37,689 nt of DNA from Rikenellaceae bacterium (lineage in GTDB: Bacteria > Bacteroidota > Bacteroidia > Bacteroidales > Rikenellaceae), in assembly GCA_015059945.1 (NCBI GenBank), contig SUZJ01000011.1:1-37689 (forward strand). The letters run 5' to 3'. The notes below the pieces were generated by a model. The model made no database searches and had not been told where the DNA came from. It worked only from the letters and a program-made list of their open reading frames with translations. Both the position numbers and the translations under genes were made by a program. Shown here piece after piece: positions 36,007 to 37,689 of this stretch (the stretch's first letter is position 1; every line of letters begins with the position of its first letter).

Positions 36007-36010
36007 CAAC

Positions 36011-36086
36011 AAAGGGTGTAAATCAAGTAGTTACGAGATTTGCACCCTTTTTTACACCCAAAAATCGAGGTTGGGTGTATTTTTTT
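36011..36086 (+). terminator. Double terminator after tRNA-Ser
   Basis: Two adjacent stems: AAAGGGTGTAAATC / GATTTGCACCCTTT (36011-36050) followed by TTT, and TACACCCA / TGGGTGTA (36053-36079) followed by seven T. The arms of the two stems are related (GGGTGTA / TACACCC), so alternative pairing between them is possible. Confidence 0.85.
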
Positions 36087-36101
36087 GAATTTTTAAGATA
36101 A

Positions 36102-36156
36102 ATGCTGGCGAAAAAAGAAGAATGAGTGTCTTTCTCTTTTCGTCAGCATCTTTTTT
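36102..36156 (+). terminator. Hairpin with T-run at island left edge
   Basis: An 18-bp stem, ATGCTGGCGAAAAAAGAA (36102-36119) with TTCTCTTTTCGTCAGCAT (36132-36149), has one wobble and one mismatch and is followed by CTTTTTT. No plus-strand gene lies just upstream other than the already terminated tRNA, so it may be the remnant 3' end of a lost gene or an element end. Confidence 0.55.
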
Positions 36157-36174
36157 GAGTGCTGCCAACGCAAA

Positions 36175-36249
36175 AATAAGTTTAGTCCGCTTTGGGTATA
36201 TAGCCAATGGAATAAACTAAACCTTATTATCGTCAGCCATCGGCTGGCG
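36175..36249. repeat. Nested inverted repeats upstream of XRE gene
   Basis: AATAAGTTTAGT (36175-36186) pairs with ACTAAACCTTATT (36216-36228, one bulge). Directly after it CGTCAGCC pairs with GGCTGGCG (36231-36249, three-base loop). The core CTG(G/A)CGAA now appears four times within 150 nt, twice on each strand (36105, 36141, 36231, 36244). Nothing else is recognised between 36087 and 36340. Confidence 0.5.
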
Positions 36250-36344
36250 AAATTATAGATTCTAAAACAACGATACAGAAAGTGCAATCTTACATCACCT
36301 TAATTTTTTATATAATATAAGGTGTGAATATGGATTTAATTCGC

Positions 36345-36352
36345 TATCTTTG
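36345..36352 (+). promoter_or_regulatory. -7 box for XRE-methyltransferase operon
   Basis: TATCTTTG matches TAnnTTTG. It sits 30 nt before the ATG at 36383 and overlaps the TTG that would begin the longer frame, so the ATG is preferred. Confidence 0.6.
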
Positions 36353-36382
36353 CCAAATAATGTCAAGACAAAAATAAGTAAT

Positions 36383-36673
36383 ATGCTGTTTACGGAGAAA
36401 ATAAAAGAGCTACGCATTCAAAATCAGATGCCACAAAGACAGATTGCGGCAGCTCTTGATATAGACACTGCAACATATTGTAAGATAGAAAAAGGTGAAC
36501 GCAGAGCCAAGAAAGAACAAGTCGCAATATTATCGGAGATGTTTCATGTAGAAATGACAGACCTCCTTACATTGTGGCTTGCCGACAAGGTAACTGATAT
36601 GGTATCTGATGAACATATTGTTGCATCGGAAGCTCTGTCAATGGCCGCTGAAAATTTAAGAAGAATAGGTTAA
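36383..36673 (+). CDS. XRE-family HTH controller protein
   Basis: This small regulator of about 96 residues consists of one Cro/C1-type helix-turn-helix domain (residues ~5-62; MPQRQIAAALDIDTATYCKI then EKGERRAKKEQ) and a short C-terminal helix. It resembles the XRE proteins that sit before cytosine methyltransferases in Bacteroidetes and the C (controller) proteins of restriction-modification systems, which bind inverted repeats at their own promoter. The TAA is followed after one base by the methyltransferase ATG, so translation is coupled. The start at 36383 is chosen over a TTG at 36350 inside the -7 box. Codon use is AT-rich, unlike the genes to the left. Confidence 0.85.
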   Translation: MLFTEKIKELRIQNQMPQRQIAAALDIDTATYCKIEKGERRAKKEQVAILSEMFHVEMTDLLTLWLADKVTDMVSDEHIVASEALSMAAENLRRIG

Positions 36674-36674
36674 T

Positions 36675-37689
36675 ATGGCTAAAGTGAAATTATACCCAGA
36701 GTTAGAAGTCCCCGAAATGCTATTAGCAGATCGGCGTTCTGCATATGGATTGAGGACATATGTCAGCCTATTCAGCAGTGCAGGAGTTGGTTGCTATGGC
36801 TTCAAGGAAGAGGGCTTCTATTGTGTCGCCACAGTAGAGTTGTTGGAACGCAGGTTGAAGATTCAGAAATTCAATCAGAAATGCGTTTATAACAGCGGAT
36901 ATATTTGTGGCGATATGACTACGCAAGAAACGAAAGATAAAGTTTTTGCGGAGTTAGCAATGTGGGAAAGAGGTTTTAATCTAACAGATTTGGATGTGTT
37001 GATTGCAACGCCTCCTTGTCAAGGTATGTCTGTTGCTAACCACAAGAAGAAAGATGAGTTAAAACGCAACTCGTTAGTTGTTGAGTCTATAAAAATGACA
37101 CAACAGATTAAACCCAAGTTCTTTATTTTTGAGAATGTTAGAGCTTTCCTTACATCTGTATGTACAGATGTTGACGGTCAAGACAAGTCAATTAAAGATG
37201 CTATTGAGGCTAACTTGTCGGGAGCATACAATATCCTCTATCAAGTCGTAAACTTCAAAGATTATGGTAATCCATCAAGTCGAACAAGAACATTAGTTAT
37301 TGGTGTTCGTAAAGATTTGAAAGAGGTCACTCCATATGATATTTTCCCCGACAAGCAGCCTGAGAGAACATTAAGACAAATTATTGGTCATTTGCCATCG
37401 TTAAAGAAGATGGGTGAAATTTCCGAAGATGATATTTATCATAACTTTAGGAAATATTCGCCTCGTATGGAATCTTGGATTGCGGATATTAAGGAGGGGC
37501 AATCGGCATTTGACAATACCGATATTACAAAGATACCGCATAGTGTAAAGAATGGTGTTATTGTGTACAACGCCCGTAAGAATGGCGACAAATATACTCG
37601 TCAGTATTGGGATAAGGTAGCACCTTGTATTCACACTCGTAACGATATTATGGCAAGTCAGAATACTGTTCATCCTGTTGATAACAGAG
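36675..37689 (+). CDS. DNA (cytosine-5) methyltransferase, 3' end outside window
   Basis: An uninterrupted frame of 338 codons runs off the right edge. Motif I is SLFSSAGVGCYGF (31-43, SAM binding) and motif IV is ATPPCQG (111-117) with catalytic Cys115. Motif VI is FFIFENV (149-155) with Glu153, and motif VIII is NFKDYGNPSSRTR (193-205). A target-recognition region begins after about 215. Motif IX/X-like sequence appears near 316-338, so little may be missing. The enzyme transfers a methyl group to C5 of cytosine in a specific DNA sequence. With the coupled XRE gene upstream it is probably the modification part of a type II restriction-modification or related defence system; an endonuclease is not in the window. 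The target cannot be inferred. Its low GC relative to the left of the tRNA suggests horizontal transfer. Confidence 0.93.
   Translation, partial: MAKVKLYPELEVPEMLLADRRSAYGLRTYVSLFSSAGVGCYGFKEEGFYCVATVELLERRLKIQKFNQKCVYNSGYICGDMTTQETKDKVFAELAMWERGFNLTDLDVLIATPPCQGMSVANHKKKDELKRNSLVVESIKMTQQIKPKFFIFENVRAFLTSVCTDVDGQDKSIKDAIEANLSGAYNILYQVVNFKDYGNPSSRTRTLVIGVRKDLKEVTPYDIFPDKQPERTLRQIIGHLPSLKKMGEISEDDIYHNFRKYSPRMESWIADIKEGQSAFDNTDITKIPHSVKNGVIVYNARKNGDKYTRQYWDKVAPCIHTRNDIMASQNTVHPVDNR

What the first reader, a model, noticed from the sequence alone, without database searches (positions are those of the whole stretch)
36007..37689. Left end of an accessory island at tRNA-Ser with a controller-methyltransferase pair
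Right after tRNA-Ser(UGA) the base composition becomes clearly AT-richer and codon use changes. The first genes are a small XRE regulator and a C5-cytosine methyltransferase, translationally coupled with one base between stop and start. tRNA 3' ends are classical integration sites, and this gene order is typical of C-protein-controlled restriction-modification systems. The partner (endonuclease or another effector) and the far att site must lie outside the window, so the system could be standard type II or something new.
Basis: partly seen in the sequence, partly recalled or inferred. Interest (0 to 1): 0.7.

Follow-up and report, generated by a model that had tools for sequence, protein, structure and literature searches.

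The report
Mobile island carrying HpyAV-type restriction system
Next to a serine tRNA gene of a gut bacterium sits what looks like the left end of a mobile DNA island whose first two genes are a small regulator and the front part of a double DNA-methylating enzyme; relatives show that these belong to a known kind of phage-restriction system, here with a well conserved putative control site.

Summary
Confirmed and mostly ordinary. In the closest relatives the gene is an 855-aa fusion of a C5-cytosine and an N6-adenine methyltransferase, followed by an HNH endonuclease with the residue spacing published for HpyAV: an HpyAV/Hin4II-type Type IIS R-M system (CCTTC in the prototypes; specificity untested here). 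The tRNA-Ser 3' end plus the next 218 bp recur in relatives with other cargo behind them; related elements carry mobilization, primase and tyrosine-integrase genes at the far end, and one in a single-contig genome is bounded by a 13-bp repeat. So the island is most likely an integrative mobilizable element of the NBU2 kind. Its far end, integrase and endonuclease are missing from this assembly. The regulator is a likely controller: GTCAAGAC, the core of a 10-bp palindrome, sits at (nearly) fixed distance behind a promoter box in 17 of 17 upstream regions compared (window included, four distant ones left out), while DNA further upstream is not conserved. The site lies downstream of the -7 box and the regulator leads methyltransferase and endonuclease, unlike textbook C proteins. 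That layout is the only part of real interest.

The parts
35922..36007 (+). tRNA-Ser(TGA), integration target
   Evidence: ARAGORN; a tRNA-Ser precedes the same element end in relatives
35994..36007 (+). attL core CCCTCTCTCTCCGC inside the tRNA 3' end
   Evidence: exact (9) or degenerate (8) copy directly before 17 of 19 element left ends seen in 20 fetched relative regions, the other 2 having a tRNA-Asp-like core; a 13-bp repeat of that kind bounds an element in L186
36008..36225 (+). conserved left terminus of the element ('POST'), with two hairpins (about 36011-36049 and 36102-36151); different cargo follows in different genomes
   Evidence: hairpins read by eye from sequence
36345..36352 (+). 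predicted promoter -7 box TATCTTTG of the Bacteroidetes type
   Evidence: TAnnTTTG in 16 of 17 compared upstream regions, CACCTTTG in L028, (the alignment is anchored on this box); consensus recalled
36361..36370 (+). predicted operator, palindrome TGTCAAGACA
36383..36673 (+). XRE-family regulator, 96 aa, probable controller
   Evidence: HTH_3 1.8e-8; PADLOC HTH_VI 3.5e-8, Control_protein 5.9e-7
36675..37689 (+). front part (338 residues) of a fused C5-cytosine/N6-adenine DNA methyltransferase, cut by the contig end
   Evidence: full-length 855-aa relative L005:9765-12332

Best explanation
The segment is the attL end of an integrative mobilizable element (IME) in the 3' end of tRNA-Ser(TGA) that carries, as its first cargo, a controller-led HpyAV/Hin4II-type Type IIS restriction-modification operon: xre - fused C5/N6A methyltransferase - HNH endonuclease. 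How it works (inferred from the families): the two methyltransferase domains mark the two strands of an asymmetric site (C on one strand, A on the other; CCTTC/GAAGG in the prototypes), and the HNH endonuclease cuts unmodified incoming DNA a few bases outside the site. The XRE dimer most likely binds the palindrome just downstream of its own promoter -7 box and represses the operon; on arrival in a naive cell the operon runs freely, the methyltransferase being translated before the endonuclease, and is then throttled. The element moves by a tyrosine integrase acting on the tRNA-Ser core and by being mobilized by a helper. Shown: tRNA, core, element end, XRE and C5 domain in the window; fused methyltransferase, endonuclease, mobilization gene and integrases in relatives; conserved promoter/operator block. 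Inferred: that the missing part of this genome's island has the same content, the site specificity, and repression by XRE.
For: Closest relative L005: 97.3% DNA identity from 36338 to the contig end and 337 of 338 residues, then an N6A domain (Eco57I 4.9e-18), an endonuclease (PADLOC REase_II 5.2e-78) and a gene 62.7% identical over its length to a protein annotated mobilization protein on a Bacteroides fragilis plasmid record. The full methyltransferase matches PADLOC PDLC03277 (823 positions) over residues 28-851 at 4.5e-235; M.HpyAV is an 823-aa C5/N6A fusion whose gene precedes an HNH endonuclease gene in the same direction (PMC2816704). L005 endonuclease residues H286-H287-N303-H312 have the spacing of HpyAV H294-H295-N311-H320; 66 of 66 tblastn stretches that cover the motif keep HH-x15-N-x8-H. 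Element end: 69 of 268 genomes of the family (own included; many over short parts) match the 338 bp after the tRNA; core before 17 of 19 left ends; an element in the single-contig genome G175 (L186) has AGAGCCTCCCTCT at 1184 and 10863 with an integrase beside the right copy. 0 of 18 other tRNA-Ser(TGA) regions fetched from the genus carry the XRE-methyltransferase pair (14 of the 18 hold at least 846 bp behind the tRNA); one genome, G003, has the whole system elsewhere between two tyrosine recombinases. Operator.
Against: In the window's own genome no N6A domain or endonuclease and no mobilization gene was found; of its four tyrosine-recombinase hits two lie by tRNA-Gly and tRNA-Pro, one has neither a tRNA nor the core within the 12 kb looked at, the fourth was not examined; the integrase of L186 has only weak relatives there (30% and 20%). 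No attR was found. No contig seen here joins tRNA-Ser, this cassette and an integrase: L007, L008 and L011, the other three with the pair at tRNA-Ser, also break inside the methyltransferase gene. L005 and L006 have a different left end. The XRE was found in 19 of 80 methyltransferase loci, and its best PADLOC hit is not the control-protein model. On a Psychrobacter plasmid a 50% identical fusion is followed by an annotated folE, with no endonuclease annotated beside it.
Confidence: 0.85

Rival explanations
1. A truncated remnant: the island has lost the N6A half and the endonuclease and keeps only an orphan C5 methyltransferase with its regulator.
For: No N6A domain, endonuclease or mobilization gene in the rest of the assembly; remnants in tandem are seen at such tRNAs in relatives.
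Against: The contig ends inside an open frame; three other assemblies break at or within 90 bp of the same place (L007, L008, L011), and several contigs of other genomes end in or within about 0.4 kb of the 218-bp end (L172, L174, L181, L187), as expected when the same mobile DNA occurs in several species of one sample. The 338 residues are 98-100% identical to the intact relatives L005 and L006.
Confidence: 0.1
2. The XRE is an immunity-type or housekeeping repressor of the mobile element (RstR-like) and not a controller of the R-M operon.
For: NCBIfam RstR subfamily is the best hit there, below its cut-off; PADLOC capH and HTH_VI also match.
Against: XRE, promoter box and palindrome stay attached to the methyltransferase in different element types and genomes, while DNA upstream of the -7 box differs; one-base spacing to the methyltransferase start.
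Confidence: 0.12
3. Classical activator-type C protein (C.PvuII-like) with a delay switch.
For: Size, HTH_3 domain and position first in the operon; Control_protein model 5.9e-7.
Against: The C-boxes described in the passages read hold two dimer sites upstream of or overlapping the promoter (PMC6237814, PMC4824078); here there is one clear palindrome downstream of the -7 box, and the regulator precedes the methyltransferase, not the endonuclease.
Confidence: 0.2

Closest known systems
HpyAV (Helicobacter pylori) and Hin4II R-M systems, Type IIS, CCTTC(6/5)
   Same: C5/N6A methyltransferases (fused in M.HpyAV, 823 aa), endonuclease gene behind in the same direction (390 aa here, 418-419 aa there), HNH site with HH-x15-N-x8-H
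   Different: An xre gene with its own promoter/operator leads the operon here (in the HpyAV paper none of 6 terms for a controller or for mobility occurs); the endonuclease start overlaps the methyltransferase stop; carried on mobile elements. No HpyAV sequence was held to align directly
NBU2 and other Bacteroides integrative mobilizable elements
   Same: Integration into the 3' end of tRNA-Ser (NBU2, table in PMC5704250; PMC8816746), tyrosine integrase, own mobilization gene in relatives
   Different: Cargo; NBU2 is listed with a MobP relaxase, the mobilization protein here was not typed; no sequence comparison with NBU2 was made
C proteins of Type II R-M systems (C.PvuII, C.Csp231I, C.Kpn2I)
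   Same: Small HTH regulator in an R-M locus with a palindromic site near its own promoter; C.Kpn2I also acts at a site downstream of its promoter
   Different: Single TGTC-AA-GACA site between promoter and start codon; regulator in front of methyltransferase and endonuclease in one apparent operon

Membership tests
HpyAV/Hin4II-type R-M | C5 and N6A methyltransferases, fused or adjacent | tested here: met
   in the window only the C5 half is present; C5, N6A and endonuclease matches together in 65 of 80 relatives, L005 and L006 included
HpyAV/Hin4II-type R-M | HNH endonuclease gene downstream, same direction, with HH-x15-N-x8-H | tested here: met
   met in relatives, 66 of 66 stretches that cover the motif; not found in the window's own genome
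HpyAV/Hin4II-type R-M | recognition of CCTTC, cleavage 6/5 | not testable with these tools
   only indirect: the region between C5 motifs VIII and IX is nearly as conserved as the part before it across 56 fused methyltransferases (mean identity 0.64 against 0.71); no set of known different specificity was run as a control
NBU2-like IME | integration at the 3' end of tRNA-Ser with a core repeat | tested here: inconclusive
   left side met; far repeat not found here, shown only for a related element L186, which is not in a tRNA
NBU2-like IME | tyrosine integrase and own relaxase | tested here: inconclusive
   integrases and mobilization gene present in related elements L006/L221, L220, L186; mobilization gene not found in this genome and no integrase of the island recognised; no Pfam or NCBIfam relaxase match
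Type II C protein | small HTH regulator in the R-M locus | tested here: met
Type II C protein | paired C-boxes upstream of or overlapping the promoter of a C-R operon | tested here: not met
   single clear palindrome downstream of the -7 box; regulator precedes the methyltransferase
Type II C protein | control of R-M gene expression | not testable with these tools
   needs expression data

The most novel reading that the evidence does not exclude
A distinct controller class: an XRE autorepressor binding a single TGTC-AA-GACA site in the start region of its transcript governs a whole methyltransferase-endonuclease operon, and promoter + operator + xre + double methyltransferase + endonuclease travel as one cassette between mobile elements with different ends and integrases, across Bacteroidota families.
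Probability: 0.45. Interest if true: 0.45.

Novelty: new member of a known kind. Interest (0 to 1): 0.3.

Why it matters
It adds a mobile, controller-led branch to the HpyAV/Hin4II family and gives a compact, conserved promoter/operator block that would make the timing of an R-M system testable in Bacteroidota. It also offers a reason why several metagenome assemblies break at this gene: closely similar mobile DNA is shared by several gut species.

Tried and rejected
Own-genome search for the missing half, endonuclease, mobilization gene and integrase: the first three were not found; of four tyrosine-recombinase hits those on C5 and C7 lie by tRNA-Gly and tRNA-Pro, the one at C3:101736 has no tRNA and no core or arm match in the 12 kb fetched, the one at C3:159467 was not examined. 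Right flank of the island by synteny with a relative (L127): the neighbour genes lie near the end of contig C7, next to another tRNA-Ser with a related element end, so no clean empty site could be drawn. attR of the L220 and L006 elements was not found by fuzzy core or short-repeat search; the right repeat of L186 was seen by eye and counted. Exact search of viral contigs for the element arm: 0. Solved structures: none for the endonuclease, one weak match for XRE, none meaningful for the mobilization protein. Phage records: the endonuclease has 2 records with 35-40% identity, not followed. A MnlI lead was dropped for HpyAV after passages of PMC2816704. Paper searches that found nothing: NBU2 with tRNA-Ser, CCTTC with methylome and Bacteroidetes, integrative and mobilizable with restriction-modification and Bacteroidales. 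Papers: passages only of PMC2816704, PMC5704250, PMC8816746, PMC4824078 and PMC6237814 (of the last also abstract and outline); all others only as search listings. The consensus TAnnTTTG, NBU2 as first lead, the relaxase guess for the 467-aa protein and Rikenellaceae as the host family are recalled.

Full report
What is there. The window is one whole contig (C11, 37689 bp) of a 13-contig, 1.81-Mb genome. tRNA-Ser(TGA) lies at 35922-36007. After it the G+C content drops to 37.7% against 53.6% before; 7 of 481 half-overlapping windows of equal size sampled from the genome are as low. A 96-aa XRE regulator (36383-36673) and a C5 methyltransferase (from 36675) follow with one base between stop and start. 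The methyltransferase frame runs open into the contig end. Two contigs of the same family f1 (G141:C7, G117:C98) are identical to records titled Alistipes sp. (L008, L011), so the host is a relative of Alistipes.

What the cut gene is. A scan of bacterial genomes gave 104 confirmed relatives, of which the best 80 were kept. In L005 (337 of 338 residues identical) the gene is 855 aa: C5 domain 29-357, N6-adenine domain (N6_Mtase 452-669, Eco57I 537-644 at 4.9e-18), matching PADLOC type II methyltransferase PDLC03277 over residues 28-851 at 4.5e-235. The endonuclease gene overlaps its stop by four bases (12329/12332) and matches REase_II PDLC03488 at 5.2e-78. In 65 of the 80 loci C5, N6A and endonuclease matches occur together, in records titled from Bacteroidales to Clostridia. 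Of the other 15, ten run into a contig end (L007, L008, L011, L021, L053, L067, L068, L072, L081, L083); L057 stops matching 0.6 kb before its contig end; L016 keeps only the start of the N6A domain; L027, L047 and L058 have no N6A match between C5 and endonuclease. On a Psychrobacter plasmid a 50% identical fusion is followed by folE and not by an annotated endonuclease. HpyAV of H. pylori has the same make-up, M.HpyAV being an 823-aa C5/N6A fusion (PMC2816704 passages). Its catalytic residues H294, H295, N311, H320 have the spacing HH-x15-N-x8-H, which 66 of 66 endonuclease stretches that cover the motif share. No HpyAV sequence was held, so membership rests on anatomy, profile and motif, not on a direct alignment. 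Across 56 full-length fusions the region between motifs VIII and IX, where C5 specificity lies, is almost as conserved (0.64) as the part before it (0.71); this agrees with one common specificity but does not prove CCTTC, and no control set was run.

The island. The 338 bp after the tRNA match 69 of 268 genomes of the family at E <= 0.001, own genome included, many only over short parts. I fetched 20 regions from those: 19 left ends of the element were seen; 9 are preceded by the exact core CCCTC(T/C)CTCTCCGC, 8 by degenerate copies, 2 by a tRNA-Asp-like end; five further matches are inner fragments. Eight of the 19 follow an intact tRNA-Ser (TGA or CGA) directly and one a tRNA-Asp; six lie 0.2-0.5 kb behind a tRNA-Ser and one 2 kb behind; L184, L186 and L188 have no tRNA near. 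After about 218 bp the cargo differs (efflux genes, unknown genes, or the R-M operon). L007, L008, L011 and the window carry the R-M pair there; in L007 the tRNA is Ser(CGA). Related elements with more of their parts: L220 (degenerate left end, cargo, 467-aa mobilization gene, primase, AAA protein, two small genes, 410-aa tyrosine integrase; no right repeat found) and L186 in a single-contig genome, with AGAGCCTCCCTCT at 1184 and 10863 and a 464-aa integrase beside the right copy; L186 shares only the first 61 bp of the left end. The mobilization gene of L005 is 94% identical to that of L220 and 62.7% to a protein annotated mobilization protein on a Bacteroides fragilis plasmid record, 62.9% to one of Butyricimonas. 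NBU2 is the described Bacteroides IME in tRNA-Ser 3' ends (PMC5704250 and PMC8816746 passages).

Results against. In the window's genome no N6A half, endonuclease or mobilization gene was found, no integrase could be assigned to the island (one of four recombinase hits not examined), and no attR. L005 and L006 share the cassette from 36330-36338 on but have another left end, and L006 its own 402-aa integrase, so the cassette and the tRNA-Ser element end have been combined by exchange; which integrase goes with this island is not known. No contig shows the complete set. Of the genus, 18 other genomes had a tRNA-Ser(TGA) region fetched; none carries the pair there, though four of those contigs end within 300 bp of the tRNA. 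G003 of the genus has the full system (E 9.0e-242 and 4.8e-78) between two tyrosine recombinases.

The regulator. A relative of the XRE was found in 19 of 80 methyltransferase loci (tblastn E <= 1e-4, some contigs cut upstream). In 21 upstream regions (window, 19 loci, L122) DNA beyond the -7 box hardly aligns; TGTCAAGACA is exact in 13 of 21. Leaving out four (L016, which has TGTTAAGACA, and L023, L026, L057 without a site; all with distant XRE), GTCAAGAC is in 17 of 17, at the same distance from the -7 box in 16 and one base nearer in L019; the box is TAnnTTTG in 16 and CACCTTTG in L028. Mean identity in nine representatives is 0.40 upstream, 0.82 in the box (the anchor), 0.80 in the 18 bases holding the palindrome and 0.51 beyond; several of the 17 are close relatives. 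TGTCAAGACA does not occur in 399,929 other bases of the genome, but chance alone would give about 0.4. The site lies at 36361-36370, between the -7 box (36345-36352) and the start codon, so binding should block initiation or early elongation. C proteins usually bind paired sites upstream of or over the promoter of a C-R operon, with C.Kpn2I as the exception that blocks elongation from inside its gene (PMC4824078, PMC6237814 passages). I therefore call XRE a probable controller that works like a C protein but does not meet the paired C-box feature.

Verdict. An ordinary kind of find: most likely a tRNA-Ser IME with an HpyAV-type R-M system. The conserved single-site control block is the part worth a test.

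Noticed in passing
G000:C7:419241-419429 (L002, L236): A second tRNA-Ser (CGA) in the same genome is followed by a related element end and the contig stops 103 bases after it; the same sequence follows tRNA-Ser(TGA) in G016 (L124). Its tRNA end reads CCTGTCTCTCCGC.
   Followed up: partly
G000:C5:203879-205297 and G000:C7:123149-124423: Two further tyrosine recombinases lie beside tRNA-Gly(GCC) and tRNA-Pro(GGG), so this small genome may hold several tRNA islands.
   Followed up: partly
L175, L176, L177, L182, L183: tRNA-Ser loci with two or more short-spaced copies of the core CCCTC(T/C)CTCTCCGC (up to one mismatch), as if elements came and left remnants.
   Followed up: partly
L006:13727-14110, L012:6361-6735, L018:4761-5135, L122:13074-13448: A 124-127 aa protein of unknown family directly behind the endonuclease gene in four loci; no Pfam or NCBIfam match for the L006 copy.
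   Followed up: partly
L005:13550-14497: Gene behind the endonuclease matches PADLOC candidate PDC-S42 (4.4e-47) and NCBIfam LAPAL putative phage structural protein (74.2 bits, cut-off 60).
   Followed up: no
L010:10001-13736: An R-M copy 87-90% identical to the L005 proteins lies on a contig titled Akkermansia sp. (another phylum): recent cross-phylum transfer or a binning error.
   Followed up: no
L033 and L084:13733-14737: A second, distant C5 methyltransferase match (24% identity) sits directly behind the endonuclease.
   Followed up: no
window 7195-9231 (-): 678-aa ORF with 94-95% identical copies near tRNA-Ser(TGA) in two relatives (L127, L128), above the 69-71% of the other shared genes there.
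   Followed up: no
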